Shown: positions 15,411 to 48,989 of the stretch, piece by piece
How positions within the stretch are numbered: the stretch's first letter is position 1
How the letters are laid out: each line of letters begins with the position of its first letter
Source of the DNA: a virus
Virus record (IMG/VR): IMGVR_UViG_3300025789_000004
Location: 1-59,551 of that record
DNA length: 59,551 nt
Strand: one strand, 5' to 3'
Position numbers and translations under genes: made by a program
The notes under the pieces: model-generated
What the model was told of the DNA's origin: nothing
Seen by the model: only the letters and a program-made list of their open reading frames with translations
Database searches by the model: none

Positions 15411-16325
15411 TTACGAGGTCGGGAACGAACCGTAGATCGAGCGCCAGTTGTAGTACCCAAACGAGTACCGCTCATAGCCCTTGACCAGCAGGTTGTCGGT
15501 CACAAAGTCCACCTGCATGTCGGTTTCGAACTTCACGCGTTCCATGTACGACAGACCGTCGATGTTGGTCAGCAGGAACCAAGCATACGACGAGGTCAGG
15601 AAGTCGTTGACCATGTAACCTTCAGGCAGGCCACCAGCAGTCGACAGGATCGCGTTCACGTCGTTGTCGGCAGTACCCGGACGCAGTTCCGTCTTCGTCA
15701 GACGAATTGCAACGGGTTCAAGCTGCGGCGGAACGATCAGCTTACGACCGCGAGCAAACACCTTCAGACCAGCCTGATCCTTGAAGTTCGTGCGGATTGC
15801 GATCATCGCATTCAGCAGCGTAGCTTCGTTCAGGTCAACCTGCGTCGAAGGAGTGTTAGCAACCGTACCACCGTCAATCGGGTGCGAAGCCGAGCACAGC
15901 GCAACGCCGTCAGCGCCGATAGCGGCGTTGTAGGTGGTGGCGGTGTTCAGAATGTTCGCGCCGTAGATTTCCTTGGTCTGCTGAAACGATTCAATCAGGC
16001 CGAGGTTCGACGGGTGGAACTGCGTCTTGTACAGGTTGTCGTCAATGGCCTTACGCGTGATGGCATAGCCCAGCGCAATTTCATTGTGCTCTTGGTTGTA
16101 GATGTAGCGTTCACCAGCACCATTGTCGAAGGAGGTCTGGCCGCCTTCAGTCTTAAGCTGGGCAAGACCGAGGTAACGCATTTCAGCGGTACGTTCGAGA
16201 GCCAGCTTCGAGTCGTGCTTCGTGAAGATCTTGTCGTACTGAGACGGAATCATCTCGTACTTGCCCTCAATCCCCCGGAGACCGGGGAGGAGAAGGTCTT
16301 TAATTGCTGAAAGATTAACAGCCAT
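15411..16325 (-). CDS. Major capsid protein
   Basis: The protein has 304 residues. It has the pattern of a HK97-fold capsid subunit without a long N-arm: LPGLRGIEGKYEMIPSQYDK at the start, an E-loop region around LKTEGGQTSFDNGAGERYIY, a spine helix (AIDDNLYKT and SFQQTKEIYGANILNTATTY), and the C-terminal NLLVKGYERYSFGYYNWRSI. AAGG precedes the ATG. It sits between a scaffold-type gene and decoration-like genes, the expected place. It also resembles Mu gpT-type head proteins. Confidence 0.8.
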   Translation of the reverse strand: MAVNLSAIKDLLLPGLRGIEGKYEMIPSQYDKIFTKHDSKLALERTAEMRYLGLAQLKTEGGQTSFDNGAGERYIYNQEHNEIALGYAITRKAIDDNLYKTQFHPSNLGLIESFQQTKEIYGANILNTATTYNAAIGADGVALCSASHPIDGGTVANTPSTQVDLNEATLLNAMIAIRTNFKDQAGLKVFARGRKLIVPPQLEPVAIRLTKTELRPGTADNDVNAILSTAGGLPEGYMVNDFLTSSYAWFLLTNIDGLSYMERVKFETDMQVDFVTDNLLVKGYERYSFGYYNWRSIYGSFPTS

Positions 16326-16338
16326 TGTGCCTTACTCC

Positions 16339-16956
16339 TTAGACGGCGGTCAGATTCTTGGTTTCGACGTTATTAAACGCCACAACCGCGTAGTTATATG
16401 CACCCGACGAAGTGCCGTTGGCACCCGGAGGGTTGGCGGGAAGCGACACAACACGGAACGGAAGCGTCGAAGTGGTCGCAGGAGTCACCGTGATGTCGAT
16501 GTAAGCGCCCGAGATACCCGTCGAGGTATTGCCGGTGCCGTAAGCGAACTGCACGTTCAGGCCGATCTGAGCAGCAGTCAGACCAGTCGAAGACGAACCG
16601 CTAACCTGCGCAAGGAACTGCGCATTCGGATCGTTGACGATGTAGGCTTCCGTAACGCCTTGGTTGGCGCTCGAAACGTCCGAACCCGGCCAATAGTTCG
16701 ACCAGACGGTGCGCTTCTGCGAAGTCGAGAGGTACTTGCAACCTTGGAAGATGCCAGCAATCGTGGTCGTGCCGGGGCCGGGGCCAGTGGTCACGCCAGC
16801 AATTGTGCCGTCCGAAAGACGAAACACTGGGTCGCCGTAGAAGATGTTCGCAGTATTGTAGTCAATTCCGCCAATCAGAGTAACCTGCTCATACGTAGGG
16901 GCCGAGCCGGTGCCACTGGACTGACGGAAACCGAAAGGGGCGTTGGTATTCGCCAT
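16339..16956 (-). CDS. Head protein of the MAN-x-NAPFGF type
   Basis: The protein has 205 residues and opens MANTNAPFGFRQSSGTGSAP, a start I associate with a head-decoration or structural family next to capsid genes. The middle (TTTIAGIFQGCKYLSTSQKR) is typical of it. AAGGA lies eight bases before the ATG. It is the first gene after the terminator at 17094-17114, so it and the capsid gene may form their own highly expressed transcript. Confidence 0.65.
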   Translation of the reverse strand: MANTNAPFGFRQSSGTGSAPTYEQVTLIGGIDYNTANIFYGDPVFRLSDGTIAGVTTGPGPGTTTIAGIFQGCKYLSTSQKRTVWSNYWPGSDVSSANQGVTEAYIVNDPNAQFLAQVSGSSSTGLTAAQIGLNVQFAYGTGNTSTGISGAYIDITVTPATTSTLPFRVVSLPANPPGANGTSSGAYNYAVVAFNNVETKNLTAV

Positions 16957-17093
16957 GTCGGGAATCCTTTTCAGGAAAGTCGTCGTCGCACACCGGGGCG
17001 ATTAAAGACTTGAAACTGGTTAAATCTCCACACCGAGGGAGATCGACTGTAACCCTGCTACTATTTAGGGCAGATTGTCAACTGCAAAATAAA

Positions 17094-23254: not shown

Positions 23255-26200
23255 TTACACAGGGTACAAGGGCGTTTCTTGCTTGTTGGGGTACGTCTTC
23301 ATGCCTTCAATTTCTTGGATGCGTTCGGCGGATCTGGTCAGCAGGCCAATATCTCGCAGGTGCCTGATCGACATAGACACAGTATCCACCAAGTCGTCAT
23401 GGCGGCCCTTTGGAAACTGACCGACTTGCGTGATCACTTCTTCGGTCCACTTCTTGTCCGGGGCGTAGATCATCCCTTCCGAGAACAAGTGCTGCACCGA
23501 ATACAGCCGCGCCATTTTGTCAAGACTTTTCGGATCCGACAACTGCACAGCAAACCCTTCATTGCCGTACAGCCTCCGCATTTCCTGCGCCACAGAGATC
23601 CCGCTGGCCTTGTTTTCAATCAGCAACTTGTCAACCTTCAGCGCCTTGCAGGTCTTGGCAACCTTCTCCACCAGATCATGGAACTCCAGCCGCTCGGTCC
23701 ATGCGTGCATCATCATGACCTTCGGCGCTGACTCATTGTACGCCCGGTCAATATACTGCGGTCGCCCATCCGCCCCAATCGTCCTGTGCGCCACGGCACT
23801 CGCATCTGTAGTGAATATGCCCCAGATTGTCATCGCAGATGGGTCATTGCTGGTTTTGGACGTATATGCCGTATCCAACGATGCCACAATGTAGTCCATC
23901 GGCGGAAAGGTCGAGTCCGGCCACAACTTCCACCAATCGCGCTTGATGATCCCACCGCCTGCAGGCTCAGGACGCTGCTGCAACTGTCCAGCCGCCATGA
24001 ACGGCCCCAATGCGCGCTCCAGCCGGGTTACTTCCTCATCGCCAAAACGATCAGGCCACAGCAAGTCACCCTCTTTCTCGCGTGGATCTTCCCAGCCAAT
24101 ACTGTTCTTGAACGCCCGATCAGCTTCATACCGCATTGGCAAACACAAGTGCGTCCAGCCAGCTGACTCTTTTTCCAGAATGTGCCCAGTCAAGTCATTC
24201 TCAGCCAATCTCTGCTGAATGACAATCATCGCCCCGGTCTTCTGATCGTTAAGACGGGTGGACATCGTGCCGTCCCACCACTCAATAGTCGATTCAATAG
24301 TTGCTTCAGAAAACGCTTCAGAGGCTGAGTTGGGGTCATCTACAATTATGCAGTTATGGGCAAGTACGCCATTAGCAAAGAAGTTGTGGCATTCTTCAAC
24401 TTGAATGTCATAGACTTTGTTCTTTGGACCGCTATATCGCTCAATTGAGCAGATGACATCATTTTGCCATGATGATGCAGGCGATGACACGATTCGCACA
24501 GCATTATCAAATTTTCCGGCACGTTGTTCCTGCTGTTCTCGTCTATGTGATGCGCGTGCAAAATTGATTTCTTTCGATTTCCGCGCTGCACCTTCTCGTC
24601 CACCAAACCACACGCCTGACAAGCGAACTCGTCCCGCTCCAAAACAATCACTCGCATATCCCGGAACTGGTTGGAATACCGGCCTAGTTTGGAAAAATTG
24701 GAATTGTGCGCACCCTTCATGCGATCCGAATGATCCGCATCCGCACAAGACGGACTGCAATAGATTGTCCAACCAGCAAATTGCGCTTTGCAACGCGGGC
24801 ATTCTTTTTTCTTGCGCTTGTCCCAACGTAATTTTTGATGGCACTCGTCCGAGCACACTTCGGAGTGCCTGTGCTTGCGCAGTTTTCCGCAAATTACACA
24901 CGCTTTTGTGTTTTTTGTGGAATGGTGTTGTGAGCAACATTTTTTTGAGCAGTATGCGTCCCGGCTTCCTTGTTTTAAGGCTTTGCGTGCCTCGTAAAGA
25001 TGCTTTTGCGTTTCTACCCCGCAGTTGTCGCATAGAAGGTTGACGATCATTTTCCGACCGTCTTTGAACAATAATCCCGTCTCCAATCCCCAATTCACAA
25101 GCTGGGACATATCCTGTCCCCTGCACGAAAATTGGATGGTCCCCAGTACACTCGACGGAAATTCCTGAAACCGTGCGTATTTCATAAAGGGTATCCGATT
25201 CAAGAAGGCGGGTTGCCAACACCCGTTTTTCTACCACCTTACCCCGTGAATGGTCAAACGATAATACTGTATCCCCTACAGAAACCTTGGAAATTGGTAC
25301 GTCTCCAAACGGCGTGGACACGTTAATCCATCCGGGAAAACATGATCCGCCTTCACCAGTCACTGCCGCACCAACTGAAGTAATCAGTCGTTCGCCACCT
25401 TGGTCATTACTAAAGCGTGACTTAGTATTCTGATCCGAATTGATCTTGAATCTTTCTCCCCACAACTTCTGGTACCATGGAGACTCAATCAATCGACGGC
25501 ATTTCACAGAGTCGCGCAACACCAACTGATTGGCATACGATGCGCAAAGAAACTGCACGCCCGGACCAGACGTCGGTGAGCGATGCTCTTGTGCCCATGT
25601 CCATGCGGGAAACGCCACAGATGTAATGGTTGAATTGTGCGTAGGGATGAGATTGCGGCCAATCAAATAAAGCCCATCTGGCGAATCTACTTGGATGCAA
25701 TGGCCAAAAAGCCCTTGCGGTTCAAGCGTCACGGACTTGAGGCCAATTGCTCGCTTAGGGGCAAATCGTTTAATTTGCTTGCGTGGAAGGGCAGTAGGAA
25801 TAGCCATTGTAGGCTGGAATGCTACTGTCCAGCATTCCTTTTTCCCTTGAATGCCTGACGTGCTCATCCGGGGCTGTGTGCTAGATACAACGGCGCGCCA
25901 CCCAAAGCTACGCACAAGCTCCGCAACGCCATCAATAATTTTCTTATTCGCATTGGAAAAATGGCACCTGTTATTCTTATCGACGCAGCCATCAGTGTCA
26001 ATCAAGCCAGCCAAAAGTTCAAGGCGTTGGCTTATGGTCCCCAAAAGATAGAGGTTTGGAATATGCTTGTCATTAAGCACGCCTGCCTCGCGCAAGCCGT
26101 TTTTGAGATTACTAGAAGCAAAGGACGTTGTGATTGCTCCAGTCCTTTTGTGTTCCCACGAGACACTGATGGAATACCCCAACGACACAATTTTGCTGAT

Positions 26201-26902
26201 GCACTCAGTATCTCGCGGGCTGTGGGTAATGCACGCCTTCCCCGACGATCCATCCCCTAGCCACGCGCCCAAGACGTAAGGATGGACAGGCAATTCAGCG
26301 CCCTTGTCAGGCATCTGCAAAGGCTCAACTAGCGGAAGTTGGTGCAACGCCCTACCCCCACTAGATGCAGCTTTGGGTTTCCCCTTTGTTTGCCCCCACC
26401 GGCCACGGCGGGGCTCCAAAAACTGCCGAGTCTCTACTGTTTCCCACAACCGGCTCATGCGATTGAACAGTGTCCATTCGTGATTTTCGTGGCAGTAGAA
26501 CACACTGCCATCAAAAAACTCAACGCGGACATTGGAAGGTGTCTTATCTGATACGGCAAGCACTTTGACTGGCTTACCAGATGGGTGAAACACAAAATCA
26601 CCTCGGGCCAAATCCCCGTGCGTTTTCCATCCTTCTGTAGTAAAAACTTCAGTGTTATCAGCTACTTGCTTGCCCATTCTGGGAGGAATGTTGATGATCA
26701 GCCGCCGTGTCTCTCCATCCACCACTGCCTGCAGATGTTCAGCCACTGCCTCAATTGGCCAACCATCTTTCCACGGGCTGGCGTCAATGTATTTCCAAGC
26801 ATTCACCAAGAAATAGTATAGGCTTTCTTCGCAGTCAGCACGATCAAGCGCTTCCAACTGCTTAATAGGATTAAGTAGTGATGGATCAAATTCTGTGTCC
26901 AT
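23255..26902 (-). CDS. terL: Terminase large subunit precursor with two inteins
   Basis: The open frame encodes 1215 residues, but only about 540 are terminase. Extein 1 (1-78) ends in IPPRMGK of Walker A. Intein 1 is residues 79-423; extein 2 (424-520) resumes with Ser and carries the ATPase core up to GEGGS. Intein 2 is 521-850; extein 3 (851-1215) starts CIIVDDP, the Walker B region, then the coupling motif IQQRLAENDL. The RNase H-type nuclease domain has ASLDTAY, LLIENKASG and RHDDLVDT. The spliced enzyme would cut concatemers and pump DNA through the portal. It starts at the ATG overlapping the terS stop (TAATG). Both inteins interrupt catalytic motifs, so activity should require splicing. 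Confidence 0.93.
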   Translation of the reverse strand: MDTEFDPSLLNPIKQLEALDRADCEESLYYFLVNAWKYIDASPWKDGWPIEAVAEHLQAVVDGETRRLIINIPPRMGKQVADNTEVFTTEGWKTHGDLARGDFVFHPSGKPVKVLAVSDKTPSNVRVEFFDGSVFYCHENHEWTLFNRMSRLWETVETRQFLEPRRGRWGQTKGKPKAASSGGRALHQLPLVEPLQMPDKGAELPVHPYVLGAWLGDGSSGKACITHSPRDTECISKIVSLGYSISVSWEHKRTGAITTSFASSNLKNGLREAGVLNDKHIPNLYLLGTISQRLELLAGLIDTDGCVDKNNRCHFSNANKKIIDGVAELVRSFGWRAVVSSTQPRMSTSGIQGKKECWTVAFQPTMAIPTALPRKQIKRFAPKRAIGLKSVTLEPQGLFGHCIQVDSPDGLYLIGRNLIPTHNSTITSVAFPAWTWAQEHRSPTSGPGVQFLCASYANQLVLRDSVKCRRLIESPWYQKLWGERFKINSDQNTKSRFSNDQGGERLITSVGAAVTGEGGSCFPGWINVSTPFGDVPISKVSVGDTVLSFDHSRGKVVEKRVLATRLLESDTLYEIRTVSGISVECTGDHPIFVQGTGYVPACELGIGDGIIVQRRSENDRQPSMRQLRGRNAKASLRGTQSLKTRKPGRILLKKMLLTTPFHKKHKSVCNLRKTAQAQALRSVLGRVPSKITLGQAQEKRMPALQSAICWLDNLLQSVLCGCGSFGSHEGCAQFQFFQTRPVFQPVPGYASDCFGAGRVRLSGVWFGGREGAARKSKEINFARASHRREQQEQRAGKFDNAVRIVSSPASSWQNDVICSIERYSGPKNKVYDIQVEECHNFFANGVLAHNCIIVDDPNSASEAFSEATIESTIEWWDGTMSTRLNDQKTGAMIVIQQRLAENDLTGHILEKESAGWTHLCLPMRYEADRAFKNSIGWEDPREKEGDLLWPDRFGDEEVTRLERALGPFMAAGQLQQRPEPAGGGIIKRDWWKLWPDSTFPPMDYIVASLDTAYTSKTSNDPSAMTIWGIFTTDASAVAHRTIGADGRPQYIDRAYNESAPKVMMMHAWTERLEFHDLVEKVAKTCKALKVDKLLIENKASGISVAQEMRRLYGNEGFAVQLSDPKSLDKMARLYSVQHLFSEGMIYAPDKKWTEEVITQVGQFPKGRHDDLVDTVSMSIRHLRDIGLLTRSAERIQEIEGMKTYPNKQETPLYPV
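24346..25050 (-). CDS. HNH endonuclease encoded out of frame inside intein 2
   Basis: The protein has 234 residues from the ATG at 25050 (M-I-V-N-L-L-C-D-N-C). Several Cys pairs follow (YCSKKCC, CVICGK, CPRCKAQF, YCSPSC), then an HNH core with CQACGLVDE, HAHHIDENSRNN and LCESCHRLHHHG. The last ~40 residues are read from DNA that also encodes the intein C-terminal block, and the frame stops seven bases past the intein. The frame differs from the terminase frame, which is open throughout. The ribosome site before the ATG is weak (CGGAAA). It may be translated independently or by frameshifting. The open frame extends upstream to 25203. Confidence 0.85.
   Translation of the reverse strand: MIVNLLCDNCGVETQKHLYEARKALKQGSRDAYCSKKCCSQHHSTKNTKACVICGKLRKHRHSEVCSDECHQKLRWDKRKKKECPRCKAQFAGWTIYCSPSCADADHSDRMKGAHNSNFSKLGRYSNQFRDMRVIVLERDEFACQACGLVDEKVQRGNRKKSILHAHHIDENSRNNVPENLIMLCESCHRLHHHGKMMSSAQLSDIAVQRTKSMTFKLKNATTSLLMAYLPITA
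24353..25342 (-). other. Intein 2 of TerL, inserted before Walker B
   Basis: Residues 521-850 of the precursor. It begins CFPGWINVSTPFGDVPI (block A), includes ECTGDHPIFVQGTGYV (block B, with the TxxH-type pair), and ends VYDIQVEECHNFFANGVLAH plus the terminal Asn before Cys (blocks F and G). The real splicing domain is about 97 + 40 residues, a normal mini-intein size. The 194 residues between (24470-25051) read as unrelated low-meaning sequence, because another frame there encodes an HNH endonuclease. Confidence 0.9.
25634..26668 (-). other. Intein 1 of TerL with LAGLIDADG endonuclease, inserted in Walker A
   Basis: Residues 79-423 of the precursor, splitting the P-loop between Lys and Ser. 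The N-terminal residue is Gln (QVADNTEVFTTEGW), a less common but known class of intein start. The homing endonuclease motifs are YVLGAWLGDG (near residue 210) and LLAGLIDTDG (near 296). The C-terminus LIPTHN followed by Ser is a standard block G. The single-frame layout with a dodecapeptide endonuclease is classical. Confidence 0.92.
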
Positions 26903-31096: not shown

Positions 31097-31487
31097 CCCC
31101 CAAACAAGGCCGCCCACAGCCTCAAAAGGCTCAAAAACCACCCTAAAACACCCCAAAACCCAGCATTTCCAATGCCTTAGCACCCTAAAAAACTGGATAG
31201 TCTAGATAGTAACTGGATAGTCAAATTTTGCTATCCAGATCTCTTTGAAAAACAAAGATAAAAGACTAGATAGTCTAGATAGTTATATATATATATATAT
31301 TCTCTCTGTGGATAAGTCCCCAAACAGTGCATTAGACTATCAGTATATCTACCTATCCAGATGTCTATATATCTGTCTCTATCTAGAAAATCGTACTATC
31401 TAGACTATCTAGTTTTTTTCCCTTTGATTTCAACGACATCTGGATAGTAACTGGATAGTAAACCGTACTATCTAGACTATCTAGTTT
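31097..31487. other. Candidate replication origin: iterons, AT tract, DnaA box
   Basis: This 391-base gap lies between convergent genes. From 31193 it holds at least twelve copies of a 9-mer, CTAGATAGT or CTGGATAGT, in both orientations. Tandem pairs are at 31266-31283, 31395-31412 and 31467-31484; others are at 31193, 31202, 31213, 31440 and 31451. The centre is an alternating AT run (31283-31300) followed directly by a perfect DnaA box. A 25-base segment ending in ACTATCTAGTTTTT is duplicated near 31390 and 31463. This is the usual anatomy of an iteron origin with an unwinding element. Confidence 0.75.
31307..31315 (-). promoter_or_regulatory. DnaA box in the origin region
   Basis: TGTGGATAA is the complement of the consensus DnaA box TTATCCACA, with no mismatch. 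It lies seven bases after the AT run, a sensible spacing for helping strand opening. Confidence 0.75.
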
Positions 31488-37854: not shown

Positions 37855-37937
37855 TCCCTCCTGCCCTACGCCAATGGCTGTGGGATAATTTCGGGTGGGA
37901 CATATACGATTGGAACGATGGGGATTTGAGGTTTTGA
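37851..37937 (+). CDS. Trp-rich microprotein, copy 1
   Basis: The protein has 28 residues and starts in an ATGA overlap with the exonuclease stop. The core is LRQWLWDNFGW, then a Tyr-Asp-Trp stretch and an acidic stretch ending DLRF. Five of 28 residues are Trp or in Trp pairs. Its last codons contain GAGG, which serves as the ribosome site for the helicase at 37939. A second copy at 43057-43140 keeps the protein sequence while changing many third codon positions, strong evidence that it is a real gene. No known family is recognised. Confidence 0.8.
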   Translation: MIPPALRQWLWDNFGWDIYDWNDGDLRF

Positions 37938-37938
37938 T

Positions 37939-39744
37939 ATGTCATTCCAATTGCGTCCATACCAGCACGGGGCGGTTGACGCCGCCCTAGACTGGATGCG
38001 GCGGAGCATTGAGCCATGCCTGATTGATGCCGCACCTGCAGCGGGCAAGTCCTTTATGATTGCCGCCATTGCCTCGGAACTTCACCGGATCAGTGGCGGC
38101 AAGAGGATCTTGTGCATTGCCCCCAGCGCAGAACTGGTCAAGCAGAACGCCGAAAAATACAAATTTACTGGCGAGAAGTGCAGCATCTTCAGCGCAAGCG
38201 CGGGTGCAAAATCCGTCAAAAATGTGGTCGTGTTCGGCACTCCTGTCACGGTCAAAAATTCCATTGAAAAGTTCAAGAGAGACTATGCGGCTATAATAAT
38301 CGATGAATGCCATGGGCTGACCCCAACCATCAGGGGCATCATTGATGAAATGCGATCAACCCAGCCGAACCTGCGCGTTTTGGGCTTGTCTGGCACACCC
38401 TACCGCATGGGAAGCGGGTACATCTTCCATATGTGGCCAGATGGCCGATCCAATGGTGACGACACCACGCGGGATCCGTACTTTGTGAAATGCGTCTACC
38501 GCGTGTCGGCACGGGAAATGCTGGATCAGGGGTTCATTACCCCTATGGAAATCGGCAAGCCCGGTTCCAGTGGATATGACACCAGTGGCATCGAACTGCT
38601 GCCAAATGGAACCTTGAACCACGAGACCGTCGAGCGGGCATTCATGGGCCATGGCAGGCTTACGGCACAGATCGTTGCGGATGTCATTAACCAATCGCGC
38701 AGCCGTCCGGGTGGCGTCATGTACTTTGCCGCGACCATTGCGCACGCCAAGGAGGTGCTTGCCAGCCTTCCTGCAGAGAACTCCGCATTGGTGACGGGCG
38801 ATATGCCGACCAAGGAGCGTGATGCTATCATTCAGCGCTATCGTAATCAGAAGATCCGGCATCTTGTGAATGTGGGTACGTTAACCACCGGCTTTGACGT
38901 TAGCCATACCGAGACAATTGCTTTGTTACGTTACACTGAATCCGCCTCTCTGCTTCAGCAGATCATGGGCAGAGCGTGGCGCTTGCATCCGGGTAAGGAT
39001 ACGTCCCTGCTGCTGGACTATGCGAATAACATAGAGGAGCATATGCCAGATGGGGATCTGTACAACCCTGAAATCCGCGCAGGCAAGGCCAGTAAGAGTG
39101 AGCGGATTGACGCGGAATGCCCGGATTGCGGCAATATCAATCAGTTTTCATTGAATGCGGATTACAAGCATTATCAATATGATAAGCATGGATATTGCAT
39201 AGATGAGTTTGGCCTTCCTTTGATCAGCGAACACGGACCTGTCGCGCGGCACTTTGGCAGGCGTTGCTTTGGCATGGTCCGAACTGGGGATAAGGGGGAA
39301 TACGACAGGTGTGGATACTACTGGACGCACAAGGAATGCCTGCAGTGCTCTGAGAAGAATGACGTCACAGCAAGGCATTGCAGGTCTTGTAAGGCTGAGT
39401 TGATCGACCCCAACAAGAAACTGGTGTCCTTCGCGGAATACAAGAAAAACCCCAAGGCCAAGCAATGCGATATTGTCCTGTCCATGAAGGTAAGGGATAG
39501 TACGTCAAACAGAGGCAATAAGACCAAGCGGGTTGATTTTGTCACACCGTATCGCAAGTTCAGCGTGTGGTTTCTACCAGATGCCAGATATGACAAGGGC
39601 ATCAAGGATTGGCAGAAGTTCTGCCATTACACTGATGGCGGATCGCACGCGCCTCATACGATCATGTATCAGAAGGACGAGTCCGGATACTTCAAGATCT
39701 TGGGCTACGACATTCCGCCAGATGACGAGGGGAATACCAAGTGA
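37939..39744 (+). CDS. Superfamily 2 DNA helicase with C-terminal zinc fingers
   Basis: The protein has 601 residues. Motif I is APAAGKSF (near 34), motif II IIIDECHGL (near 117), motif III LSGTPYRMG, and motif VI IMGRAWRLHPGKD. The C-terminal third has Cys pairs (CPDCGNIN; CLQCSEKN with CRSCKAEL) for zinc. It resembles SSL2/RecG-like phage helicases encoded beside YqaJ and VRR-NUC nucleases. Role: unwinding or branch processing in replication and recombination. Confidence 0.87.
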   Translation: MSFQLRPYQHGAVDAALDWMRRSIEPCLIDAAPAAGKSFMIAAIASELHRISGGKRILCIAPSAELVKQNAEKYKFTGEKCSIFSASAGAKSVKNVVVFGTPVTVKNSIEKFKRDYAAIIIDECHGLTPTIRGIIDEMRSTQPNLRVLGLSGTPYRMGSGYIFHMWPDGRSNGDDTTRDPYFVKCVYRVSAREMLDQGFITPMEIGKPGSSGYDTSGIELLPNGTLNHETVERAFMGHGRLTAQIVADVINQSRSRPGGVMYFAATIAHAKEVLASLPAENSALVTGDMPTKERDAIIQRYRNQKIRHLVNVGTLTTGFDVSHTETIALLRYTESASLLQQIMGRAWRLHPGKDTSLLLDYANNIEEHMPDGDLYNPEIRAGKASKSERIDAECPDCGNINQFSLNADYKHYQYDKHGYCIDEFGLPLISEHGPVARHFGRRCFGMVRTGDKGEYDRCGYYWTHKECLQCSEKNDVTARHCRSCKAELIDPNKKLVSFAEYKKNPKAKQCDIVLSMKVRDSTSNRGNKTKRVDFVTPYRKFSVWFLPDARYDKGIKDWQKFCHYTDGGSHAPHTIMYQKDESGYFKILGYDIPPDDEGNTK

Positions 39745-40443: not shown

Positions 40444-40722
40444 ATGAACGATGAATTGGAATTTGCAGAGAAGATCCTGTCTGGCCGCTGGAGGCTGAAT
40501 GACCGCGTGGCCAAGGAGAGGGAATGGAAAGATGCCGCGCAAGGAGCGGTTGATGGCGATGTTTCTGAACTTGACCGTCTTCTGGATCTCGACGCGCTTT
40601 TCGATTTCTACCTTGACGAACCCCAGAGCGGAGAATGGGACTACACATTCAAAGATTGGGTAGAGGAGCAGGGCGGCTTCAAGGTGGCTGCAGCCCGTTA
40701 TTTGGAGTGGCATTCAAAGTGA
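40444..40722 (+). CDS. Small acidic protein, function unknown
   Basis: The protein has 92 residues, acidic and helical: MNDELEFAEKILSGRWRLND, then a Leu/Asp-rich middle (LDRLLDLDALFDFYLDEP) and an aromatic end. It is translationally coupled (GTGA) to the DnaA-domain gene and could be its partner. No family is known. Confidence 0.65.
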   Translation: MNDELEFAEKILSGRWRLNDRVAKEREWKDAAQGAVDGDVSELDRLLDLDALFDFYLDEPQSGEWDYTFKDWVEEQGGFKVAAARYLEWHSK

Positions 40723-41192
40723 GATTGAGGGTTATTGACATCATTCGCCATGCGGTAAGGGTTACTCGCATTCCCCAAGAGGCTTTGATTGGCCAATCTC
40801 GCTTGATGGATTATGTGTGGGTTCGGAAAGCTATTGTAATGGTGGCGCGCGAACAAGGGTATTCCTATCCAGACATTGGTCGCCTCATGGGCAAAAGGCA
40901 TCATACTACAATCATGCATGCCGACCGTTGCGCCAAGAAAATGGTAAAGGACGATGATCGTTTCGCCCGCCTTGTGGAAGAACTTCGGCGGTCTGAGCCA
41001 GAGTTCACTACGGAGAAGCGGACCATAGCAATTCCCCGCGCGAAGGAGCCAATTAGCGATGATTTGGTTGTTGTACGTATTCGTCCTGACGCTGATCCAG
41101 AAGAAAACTTAGGTCGCGATACGGACGCCATGCAGCGCAAGATTGGAAGTGATAGGCTATTGAATGCCCTATTGGCAGCGAGGTCGGCATGA
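40719..41192 (+). CDS. DnaA domain IV-like DNA-binding protein
   Basis: The protein has 157 residues from a GTG overlapping the previous stop. Residues 30-75 match DnaA domain IV: VWVRKAIVMVAREQGYSYPD, then IGRLMGKRHHTTIMHADR, which holds the His-Thr-Thr that reads the DnaA box. It lacks the DnaA AAA+ domain. The C-terminal 70 residues are basic and unassigned. Two perfect DnaA boxes lie in this genome, one in the iteron region and one just upstream of this gene group. It could recruit or block the host initiator. Confidence 0.87.
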   Translation: MRLRVIDIIRHAVRVTRIPQEALIGQSRLMDYVWVRKAIVMVAREQGYSYPDIGRLMGKRHHTTIMHADRCAKKMVKDDDRFARLVEELRRSEPEFTTEKRTIAIPRAKEPISDDLVVVRIRPDADPEENLGRDTDAMQRKIGSDRLLNALLAARSA

Positions 41193-43060: not shown

Positions 43061-43140
43061 GCCCCGCCCTCCGGCAATGGTTGTGGGATAATTTCGGCTG
43101 GGACGTATACGACTGGGCCGATGAAGATCTGAGGTTTTGA
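43057..43140 (+). CDS. Trp-rich microprotein, copy 2
   Basis: The protein has 27 residues from a GTG in a GTGA overlap. The core LRQWLWDNFGWD is the same as in copy 1 (37851-37937), and the C-terminus DLRF is kept. Changes are Ile to Val, Asn to Ala and Gly to Glu, plus many synonymous third-position changes. The trailing bases GAGGTTTTGATATG are identical to those after copy 1 and provide the ribosome site and start of the next gene. Confidence 0.8.
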   Translation: MSPALRQWLWDNFGWDVYDWADEDLRF

Positions 43141-43141
43141 T

Positions 43142-43405
43142 ATGGAAGATGATGCAATCCCCCAGTGGGCGCTGGACGAGGCCGTGAAGCGGCTGAATGT
43201 TGGCCGAACCCTTCATTACAACTGCGATATGCACAGCACACAAGTACTCGCCCGCATGATCGCGAAGCATGAGAATCCGCCAGTCGATTCTGACGAGGAG
43301 GCGGTGAATCGGATACTCAGGGCGGCTTTTCCGCGCGGCGTGATTTATTCTGAAGATAAAGCCCGCGCCCTCGCCCAATACAAGAAGGAGATTGGCCGTG
43401 GTTGA
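43142..43405 (+). CDS. Small protein, function unknown
   Basis: The protein has 87 residues, reading EDDAIPQWALDEAVKRLNVG at the start, then a helical middle (STQVLARMIAKHENPPVDSD) and a basic end. Its ribosome site lies in the Trp-rich microgene. No family is recognised. Confidence 0.65.
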   Translation: MEDDAIPQWALDEAVKRLNVGRTLHYNCDMHSTQVLARMIAKHENPPVDSDEEAVNRILRAAFPRGVIYSEDKARALAQYKKEIGRG

Positions 43406-45110: not shown

Positions 45111-45542
45111 ATGGCAAGGCCGCGGTACGAGACAGTCGAGGACCTCACCCGCGAGCAGCGGGTGGCAGTACGCATCGGTGAATTCCTTGGCCGGGACTTC
45201 GAGAAGATGGACGCCAATAGTGGCGGGGACTTCCTGTATACTGCCCCGGGCAAGCCCAGCGTCGTCGTGGAGATAAAGACGCGCACGAACGCCTGCGGCA
45301 AGTACCCGACCTATATGGTCAGCAAGAACAAGTATGACCGGCTGTGCAGCTGGCACGCCAAGGGCTACAAGGCCACCCTGTTCGTGCATTGGACCGACAT
45401 GGTCGGGTACGTCATGGTGCCCTGCGATGGGATCACGTTCGGGAAGGGCGGACGCACCGACCGCAACGACGCCCTCGACACCGGGACAATGGCGTACATC
45501 CCCACAAACAATTTCAAAAGTATCGGACCGAGCGTCTTGTGA
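45111..45542 (+). CDS. Putative PD-(D/E)XK-type nuclease
   Basis: The protein has 143 residues from the ATG at 45111, six bases after GGAG. The pattern GEFLGRDFEKMDANSGGDFL, then VVVEIKTRTN, gives an Asp followed by E-x-K as in small restriction-fold nucleases and resolvases. TNACGKYPTYMVSKNKYDRL and ATLFVHWTDMVGYVMV fit the fold. Its target cannot be read from sequence. The catalytic call rests on these residues alone. Confidence 0.6.
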   Translation: MARPRYETVEDLTREQRVAVRIGEFLGRDFEKMDANSGGDFLYTAPGKPSVVVEIKTRTNACGKYPTYMVSKNKYDRLCSWHAKGYKATLFVHWTDMVGYVMVPCDGITFGKGGRTDRNDALDTGTMAYIPTNNFKSIGPSVL

Positions 45543-45691
45543 GCATCAACCGCGCCATAGCCGTCCACCTCACCAAGGCGGTCGGGACGATGTGGTGCGT
45601 GTACGCCTTCACTGTACTCTCTTTGTTCCCCATCGCCGTCCCGGCGTCGACCGGGGCGATCCAGTACATCAGCAGCGGCTCCGGAGCCTAG
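45539..45691 (+). pseudogene. Truncated 5' copy of the membrane-protein gene
   Basis: A GTG in a GTGA overlap opens 50 codons. The product aligns with the N-terminal half of the protein at 46328-46642: SINRAIAVHLTKAVGTMWCV versus SINRKLSVVLTSCLGSMWCF, and QYIS versus LYLS. After that point the frame ends within four codons, where the HNH endonuclease gene begins. It looks like the stump of the original gene left after endonuclease insertion. Confidence 0.75.
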
Positions 45692-45692
45692 T

Positions 45693-46340
45693 GTGGACTA
45701 CACAAAGCACTACGAAAATTTGGTCAGTAGGGCTATTGGACGTACCTTGGTTGGGTATAGCGAGCGCCACCACATCCTGCCTAAGTGCATGGGGGGAGGG
45801 GACGAGGGCAGCAATCTAGTTAGCCTTACTCCGAGGGAGCACTTCTTCGCCCACCAGCTGCTCCTAAAAATGTACCCGAACGTCAGGGGTCTGGCATACG
45901 CCGCGATGCTGATGTCGGGAAAGTCCGCCTACAGCAAGGGGTCCAGAAGGTATGGCTGGCTGAGAGAAAGGTACCGAGAAACGGGAAGGTCAAAAGAGCA
46001 CTGCGAGAACATATCGAAAGCAAAGATGGGCAAGGTAACAGAGGCTATGCGCAGGCCAAAGTCGGAAGAGCATAAGGCTGCATTGCGGAGGCCAAAGAGC
46101 CCGGAACATATCGCCAAGATAAAAAAGCTTGCCTGCACTCCTGAGGGCAGGGCAGTTAGGTCAGCGAACTCGAGGGGGAGGACAATCAGTGCCGAGCAAA
46201 AAGCCAAGCAATCGAAGGCAATGAAGGGGAGGCCCGGGCCCAGAAAAGGTATCCCCATGTCTGAAGAGGCAAAAATAAAACTATCAAATTCACAAAAAGA
46301 AAGACTAGCTAAGAGAAAGAGAGAGCAATGTCCTCTATAA
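45693..46340 (+). CDS. HNH homing endonuclease with NUMOD repeats
   Basis: The protein has 215 residues from a GTG. The HNH core is ERHHILPKCMGGGDEGSNLV with EHFFAHQLL. The C-terminal half has at least four NUMOD3-type DNA-binding repeats (SKEHCENISKAKMGK, SEEHKAALRRPKSPEHIAKI, SAEQKAKQSKAMKGRPG, SEEAKIKLSNSQKER). It is more AT-rich than the flanking genes. It sits exactly between a truncated and an intact copy of one membrane-protein gene. Confidence 0.9.
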   Translation: MDYTKHYENLVSRAIGRTLVGYSERHHILPKCMGGGDEGSNLVSLTPREHFFAHQLLLKMYPNVRGLAYAAMLMSGKSAYSKGSRRYGWLRERYRETGRSKEHCENISKAKMGKVTEAMRRPKSEEHKAALRRPKSPEHIAKIKKLACTPEGRAVRSANSRGRTISAEQKAKQSKAMKGRPGPRKGIPMSEEAKIKLSNSQKERLAKRKREQCPL

Positions 46341-46642
46341 ACAGAAAGCTGTCTGTTGTTTTGACGTCTTGCCTCGGTAGCATGTGGTGCTTTTATGCAT
46401 TTGTACTTCTGGAAATGTCGCCTATAGCCTTCCCGAATAGCATGGACACAGTACTTTACTTGTCTAACTGCATACAACTAGCCTTTATGCCCGCCATCAT
46501 GGTGGGCAGTGCAATCCTCAACGAGGAGGCAGAAGACCGGGCGCGGCAGGACCACGAGATACTGATCCAAGAGCTGCAAATGCTCCGGGACATCCTTGAT
46601 GCCTTAAATCTGGCCACACAGGGCCACACAGAGGAGAAGTAG
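46328..46642 (+). CDS. Small two-pass membrane protein, intact copy
   Basis: The protein has 104 residues. Two transmembrane segments are visible (GSMWCFYAFVLLEMSPIAF and SNCIQLAFMPAIMVGSAIL), followed by an acidic coiled coil (EDRARQDHEILIQELQMLRD). The MWC-x-YAF and VG-x-A-IL pattern resembles a small membrane protein I recall from many phages, function unsettled. It overlaps the HNH gene by 13 bases and is homologous to the stump at 45539-45691. Confidence 0.75.
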   Translation: MSSINRKLSVVLTSCLGSMWCFYAFVLLEMSPIAFPNSMDTVLYLSNCIQLAFMPAIMVGSAILNEEAEDRARQDHEILIQELQMLRDILDALNLATQGHTEEK

Positions 46643-48545: not shown

Positions 48546-48989
48546 TTACTCCTTGGCGTACAGCATTGCCTCGGCACCACGGCGGCGCTCAAGGCCAGAC
48601 GAAACCCGGCCATTCATGTGGTCCCACTTGCAGAATTCTGCCCTAGCGCCAGCATAATCGCCAGCGTTATGGCGTTTCAGCAGGGTGGATCCAGACAGGT
48701 TACCGAGGCCCACGTTGTAGGCGAAGGATACCAGAGCCGCGAACTGGTTATCCGTGCATTTGGGAGCAAGGCGTGACACGCCGTCTTCAAACCTGTGAAG
48801 ATCTGCTTCAAGGTATTCATCTGCCTGATCGTGCGTAATAACGCTATCAGGATGCACCTCGGGGCCAGTGTGGCCATAGCCAATGGTCCACGGTGCGCCG
48901 CCAGTACCCGGATCGGGATAGGCGCGCAGGCGGCATCCTTCAAATTCTTGAATCAAATCAAGGCCAGCAGTGTTGATATTTCGCGTCAT
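48546..48989 (-). CDS. Endolysin, T4-type lysozyme (GH24)
   Basis: The protein has 147 residues. The catalytic triad is visible as Glu17 (EFEGCRLRAYPDP), Asp26 and Thr35 (WTIGYGHTG). The fold is confirmed by ALVSFAYNVGLGNLSGSTLL and the C-terminal GLERRRGAEAML. There is no signal or anchor segment, so it should need the holin to reach the murein. It cleaves the glycan backbone. Confidence 0.93.
   Translation of the reverse strand: MTRNINTAGLDLIQEFEGCRLRAYPDPGTGGAPWTIGYGHTGPEVHPDSVITHDQADEYLEADLHRFEDGVSRLAPKCTDNQFAALVSFAYNVGLGNLSGSTLLKRHNAGDYAGARAEFCKWDHMNGRVSSGLERRRGAEAMLYAKE

What the first reader, a model, noticed from the sequence alone, without database searches (positions are those of the whole stretch)
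45539..46642. HNH insertion between a truncated gene and a regenerated diverged copy
The stump at 45539-45691 and the gene at 46328-46642 are homologous from their first residues, and the stump stops where the HNH-NUMOD gene starts. The endonuclease seems to have broken a small membrane-protein gene and brought, or been followed by, a replacement copy from another lineage. That would be homing at an essential or useful gene without killing it.
Basis: partly seen in the sequence, partly recalled or inferred. Interest (0 to 1): 0.75.

Follow-up and report, generated by a model that had tools for sequence, protein, structure and literature searches.

The report
Homing endonuclease beside broken and replaced gene
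In this uncultured phage a selfish DNA-cutting gene sits directly behind the broken front end of a small membrane-protein gene and directly in front of a complete but very different version of that gene, as if the cutter broke the gene and supplied its own repair part, an arrangement known in yeast and fungal mitochondria that I did not find described in phages.

Summary
A 50-codon stump (45539-45691) and a 104-codon gene (46328-46642) are homologous from the first residues (48%, E 6e-11). Between them lies an intact Mob-type HNH homing endonuclease gene (45693-46340). The stump stops at a conserved motif (YISS|SFLQL). The protein belongs to a large DUF1003-like two-helix membrane family. Single copies were seen in about 50 other distinct viral members and in 89 genome loci; only this phage has two, and no relative has two intact tandem copies. 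The best explanation is that endonuclease-provoked repair at the motif orphaned the resident 5' part and brought in the endonuclease plus a diverged replacement. This resembles, in mirror image, yeast WHO elements and Allomyces/Glomus mitochondrial hybrid genes. Whether the replacement is a whole donor gene or a donor 5' half fused to the resident 3' half is unresolved: base composition favours a chimera, protein divergence does not. No uninterrupted allele and no donor was found, so homing itself is inferred. This is a new variant of a known kind.

The parts
45111..45542 (+). PDDEXK_14 phage nuclease gene; its TGA overlaps the stump's GTG start (GTGA)
   Evidence: PF24579 E 8e-27; sequence
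45539..45691 (+). 5' stump of the resident DUF1003-like membrane-protein gene, 50 codons; homology ends at YISS (about 45676), then GSGA-stop
   Evidence: GC 65%, codon use like neighbouring genes
45677..45688 (+). left junction: 12-base perfect palindrome GGCTCCGGAGCC between the last homologous codon and the stop, holding GGAG, the likely ribosome site of the HNH gene
   Evidence: no significant RNA fold
45693..46340 (+). Mob-type HNH homing endonuclease, 215 aa; HH26-27, N41, H50 and H54 conserved
   Evidence: phrog_655 E 1e-48; alignment with T4 MobE, MobB and relatives
46328..46642 (+). complete diverged copy of the membrane-protein gene, 104 codons; start overlaps the HNH 3' end
46328..46474 (+). 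5' half of the copy: GC 42%, foreign-looking codon use
46475..46642 (+). 3' half of the copy: GC 57%, codon use like neighbouring plus-strand genes; possible remainder of the resident gene
   Evidence: protein divergence argues otherwise
46463..46477 (+). position in the copy that corresponds to the stump's break; carries a one-codon deletion relative to the YISS-type relatives

Best explanation
A Mob-type HNH homing endonuclease entered this phage at a DUF1003-like membrane-protein gene, about at codon 46-47 (conserved YISS/SFLQL). The resident gene was broken there. Its first 46 codons remain as a stump; then follow the endonuclease gene and a full-length, diverged version of the membrane gene. 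Inferred mechanism: (1) in a mixed infection the enzyme nicks or cuts the resident gene at the motif; (2) the break is repaired from a donor phage in which the endonuclease lies just upstream of a divergent version of the gene; (3) the left end keeps the resident 5' part, while the right end recombines inside the gene or beyond it, so the phage gains the endonuclease plus a copy altered at the site (one codon shorter). In effect the element cuts and replaces. Expression is probably as one coupled message: PDDEXK stop overlaps stump start, stump stop lies one base before the HNH start, and the HNH end overlaps the copy's start. Shown here: the arrangement, the homologies, the conserved break motif, single-copy relatives and the composition contrast. 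Inferred: cutting, donor, resistance and coupling.
For: Homology of stump and copy. Intact HNH gene with catalytic residues, of the T4 MobE/MobB/MobD group. Break at a motif unbroken in relatives, with a one-codon deletion at the same place in the copy: 37 residues from MWC to IMVG against 38 in six relatives of that type, other subfamilies longer. Single copies elsewhere: viral loci, about 80 helicase-related phage loci of which only this phage's own contig has the gene, 89 genome loci. Foreign composition: codon fit against plus-strand phage genes z +0.85 stump, -6.5 HNH, -3.3 copy 5' half, -0.6 copy 3' half. GC difference between the halves of the copy, +0.154, is the most extreme of 50 family members (mean -0.03, sd 0.05; next highest about 0.06), whereas stump plus 3' half gives a normal -0.056. 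The phage encodes its own RecE-like exonuclease and Sak4-like annealing protein.
Against: No uninterrupted allele or donor found. The copy's 5' half has the stump as its closest relative (97/57 support, branch 3.2), compatible with an in-place duplicate that diverged fast. Both halves of the copy are equally diverged from the family (0.353 and 0.349), and stump plus 3' half has an unusual N-minus-C identity difference (+0.111, family maximum 0.082), which argues against the chimera version. Change-point support is modest (synonymous shuffle p 0.026, codon shuffle p 0.06). Codon-fit contrast of the halves depends on the reference genes: against minus-strand genes both halves fit poorly. None of the HNH relatives examined shows clearly repeated flanking gene pieces.
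Confidence: 0.6

Rival explanations
1. Tandem duplication first: the phage had two membrane-protein genes, one diverged, and the HNH gene later landed in or behind the first copy, whose 3' part was lost.
For: The copy's 5' half is sister to the stump in the N-half tree; both halves of the copy are equally diverged, as a coherent old paralogue would be.
Against: No relative with two copies in any searched collection. Stump and copy 5' half differ sharply in GC (65% against 42%) and codon fit within one genome, which long residence together should have evened out (inference).
Confidence: 0.22
2. Ordinary illegitimate recombination brought in a block holding an HNH gene and a membrane gene; the endonuclease was a passenger and the break position is chance.
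For: Phages are mosaic, the PDDEXK-to-DUF3310 region is variable among relatives, and MobE-like genes usually sit between unrelated genes.
Against: The incoming block carries the same gene family as the one it breaks; the break falls in a conserved motif, and the copy has an indel at the same place.
Confidence: 0.15
3. The stump is not a relic but a working 50-residue single-helix peptide acting with or against the full-length protein, like a split gene.
For: Intact start, one hydrophobic helix, native codon use and no sign of decay.
Against: No relative was seen with a separate N-terminal peptide; lack of decay is also expected if the break is recent.
Confidence: 0.03

Closest known systems
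WHO elements of Torulaspora and Lachancea yeasts (PMC7282813)
   Same: Endonuclease gene next to a full-length host gene and an orphan fragment of the same gene; fragments begin at about the cleavage site; the host gene is a chimera made resistant by the incoming part.
   Different: WHO replaces the 3' end of FBA1 and leaves 3' fragments downstream; here a 5' fragment lies upstream and the endonuclease precedes the full gene (mirror image). HNH Mob-type enzyme, not LAGLIDADG intein-zinc finger. Cleavage is proven only for WHO.
Mobile endonuclease ORFs with foreign C-terminal gene halves in Allomyces and Glomus mitochondria (PMC3630166)
   Same: Endonuclease ORF inserted with a foreign half of the target gene; native half displaced; hybrid gene expressed.
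   Different: Foreign C-terminal half there, foreign N-terminal part (or whole gene) here; mitochondria, LAGLIDADG/GIY-YIG enzymes.
T4-type free-standing homing endonucleases MobE, MobB, MobD, SegF, SegG (PMC2988022)
   Same: Same HNH family as MobE/MobB/MobD; promoter-less cassette coupled to the upstream gene; Seg and Mob enzymes act on a neighbouring gene of related phages and co-convert it.
   Different: No flanking fragment of the target gene is left in those I examined.
Split nrdA by mobE in phage Aeh1 (PMC2988022)
   Same: Mob HNH gene sits inside a host gene.
   Different: In Aeh1 both gene halves are used as a split protein; here a complete second copy follows.

Membership tests
Mob-type HNH homing endonucleases (phrog_655) | profile match and full-length alignment with T4 MobE/MobB | tested here: met
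   E 1e-48; alignment from residue 1
Mob-type HNH homing endonucleases (phrog_655) | HNH catalytic residues present | tested here: met
   H26, H27, N41, H50, H54 invariant
Mob-type HNH homing endonucleases (phrog_655) | site-specific nicking or cleavage and preferential inheritance | not testable with these tools
   needs enzyme and phage crosses
DUF1003-like membrane proteins (PF06210) | Pfam gathering score | tested here: inconclusive
   relative L074 28.9 bits, above the 27.4 cut-off; window gene 14.4, below it; linked through the family profile
WHO-type homing elements | endonuclease between a full-length target gene and an orphan fragment of it | tested here: met
   (mirrored order)
WHO-type homing elements | full-length gene is a chimera of incoming and resident parts, joined at the break | tested here: inconclusive
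   composition for, protein divergence against
WHO-type homing elements | enzyme cuts sensitive allele, spares resident allele | not testable with these tools
   no assay; no sensitive allele found
WHO-type homing elements | intein-derived LAGLIDADG enzyme with zinc finger | tested here: not met
   HNH enzyme; so it is not a WHO element, only similar in layout

The most novel reading that the evidence does not exclude
A phage-borne cut-and-replace homing element: HNH gene plus a cleavage-resistant 5' half of its target gene as one mobile unit, with the orphaned 5' stump serving as the left homology arm for the next transfer (a mirror-image WHO element in a virus).
Probability: 0.3. Interest if true: 0.75.

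Novelty: new variant of a known kind. Interest (0 to 1): 0.5.

Why it matters
Free-standing homing endonucleases are thought to survive by settling between genes. One that breaks a gene and supplies the replacement would show that the cut-and-rescue strategy of yeast WHO elements and fungal mitochondria has also arisen in phages. The stump would mark the cut site directly, making it testable with one enzyme and one short target.

Tried and rejected
Searches for an uninterrupted allele: the membrane gene, an exact 21-base stump junction string and a degenerate 3'-half pattern in viral contigs gave this phage's own contigs plus one hit with no detectable family member (L209). Helicase-guided search for close relatives gave 80 loci; only the phage's own contig holds the gene. 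The nearest complete record found, MW202675.1, lacks PDDEXK, HNH and membrane gene. A general scan of 1.8 Mb of fetched DNA for repeated gene pieces 0.3-3 kb apart gave 69 raw hits, among them the window locus; the other hits were not examined one by one. Flanking-homology test on the other HNH loci: none (one with a 22-residue match at E 0.009), the window as positive control positive. RBS-sequestering hairpin at the junction: not significant. Half-wise trees: too few columns to decide donor origin.

Full report
What is there. The window is a 59.6 kb virus contig with terminase, portal and capsid genes and a RecE/Sak4 recombination pair. On the plus strand, four coding units are packed end to end: a PDDEXK_14 nuclease gene (45111-45542), a 50-codon open frame (45539-45691), an HNH endonuclease gene (45693-46340) and a 104-codon gene (46328-46642). 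The 50-codon frame and the 104-codon gene are homologous from their first residues, 48% over about 45 residues, E 5.9e-11. Both are found independently by a profile of relatives. The 8.3 kb around them recur at 100% identity in a contig from another sample, and the HNH 3' end plus gene in a third.

What the gene is. The first protein searches found no phage family for it. A degenerate pattern for MWCxYAF uncovered a large family in viral contigs, about 105-260 residues long, with hydrophobic helices and a charged tail. One relative passes the Pfam gathering score for DUF1003. Genome contigs hold it as well: 89 of 120 loci, capped search. The closest relatives of the stump (L074, L081, L075, L072) read ...YISSSFLQLVLLPLIMVG... 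or close to it; the stump reads ...YISSGSGA-stop. It is therefore a truncation at a conserved motif, not a short gene. The downstream copy has lost one codon at the same place (37 residues from MWC to IMVG against 38 in the six relatives of that spacing).

What the endonuclease is. It matches phrog_655 at E 1e-48 and aligns from residue 1 with MobE, MobB and other T4-type HNH enzymes, with the catalytic histidines and asparagine kept. Its relatives lie between genes in many T4-like and other phages, often overlapping the upstream stop or downstream start. None of those examined has clear pieces of one gene on both sides (the test detects the window's own case). The arrangement here is therefore special to this locus, not a habit of the enzyme family.

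One copy elsewhere. Among the loci fetched around family members, only this phage has two. Among about 80 loci from phages with a related helicase, only this phage's own contig has the gene at all, so no uninterrupted allele could be compared. Genome loci also hold single copies.

Origin of the copy. The stump is GC-rich (65%, GC3 0.90) with codon use like the neighbouring genes. The HNH gene and the first 50 codons of the copy are AT-richer (copy 5' half 42%, GC3 0.53) and fit the phage's codon use poorly (z -6.5 and -3.3). The rest of the copy is 57% GC and fits (z -0.6). As a control, 50-codon pieces of other phage genes mostly range between -3 and +3, with one doubtful open frame (40635-41192) lower, so the copy's 5' half is at the edge of the normal range. 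Across the family the two halves have nearly equal GC (mean difference -0.03, sd 0.05); the copy's +0.154 is the largest of 50, and stump plus 3' half would be normal. The best change point lies at codon 54 with support from 45 to 65, which includes the break position; the test is only moderately significant. This suggests a chimera: incoming 5' half, resident 3' half. Protein divergence does not agree: both halves of the copy are equally far from the family, and stump plus 3' half would be unusually unequal. Against minus-strand genes as reference the 3' half also fits poorly. In the N-half tree the copy's 5' half groups with the stump on a very long branch. I leave chimera against whole donor gene open.

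Mechanism. The arrangement fits repair of a break made at the YISS/SFLQL motif, with the resident 5' part left behind and the endonuclease plus a changed gene part or gene taken from a donor. Yeast WHO elements are proposed to do this in mirror image: homing leaves a full-length chimeric, resistant host gene, then the endonuclease, then an orphan fragment starting near the cut site (PMC7282813). Allomyces and Glomus mitochondria show endonuclease ORFs that bring a foreign C-terminal half (PMC3630166). In T4-like phages the known outcome is co-conversion of the neighbouring gene, or a split gene (PMC2988022). My literature searches did not turn up the fragment-plus-replacement form in a phage; the library holds open-licence papers only, so this is not proof of absence.

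Verdict. Observation confirmed; interpretation partly supported. The homing step, the donor and the resistance of the copy remain inference until an enzyme assay or an uninterrupted allele is available.

Noticed in passing
23255-26902 (-): The 1215-residue terminase large-subunit frame carries intein signatures: a LAGLIDADG/Hom_end stretch at residues 286-351 and a HINT/intein-splicing stretch at about 514-851, probably two inteins.
   Followed up: partly
45677-45688: A perfect 12-base palindrome GGCTCCGGAGCC lies exactly at the left junction, unique in the window, and holds the likely ribosome site of the HNH gene; RNA folding there is not better than shuffles.
   Followed up: partly
43063-43144 and 37860-37941: An 82-base stretch is repeated at 85% identity about 5 kb apart.
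   Followed up: no
31100-31400: A 30% GC island next to the primase gene in a 54% GC genome, a possible replication origin.
   Followed up: no
15420-17001: The major capsid region is 78% identical to MW202675.1 (Manatee Spring metagenome) at the DNA level, although other shared proteins are only about 37-58% identical apart from one short stretch.
   Followed up: partly
48546-48989 (-): Endolysin matches the gene-transfer-agent endolysin BgtA model in part (133 bits, below its cut-off of 315).
   Followed up: no
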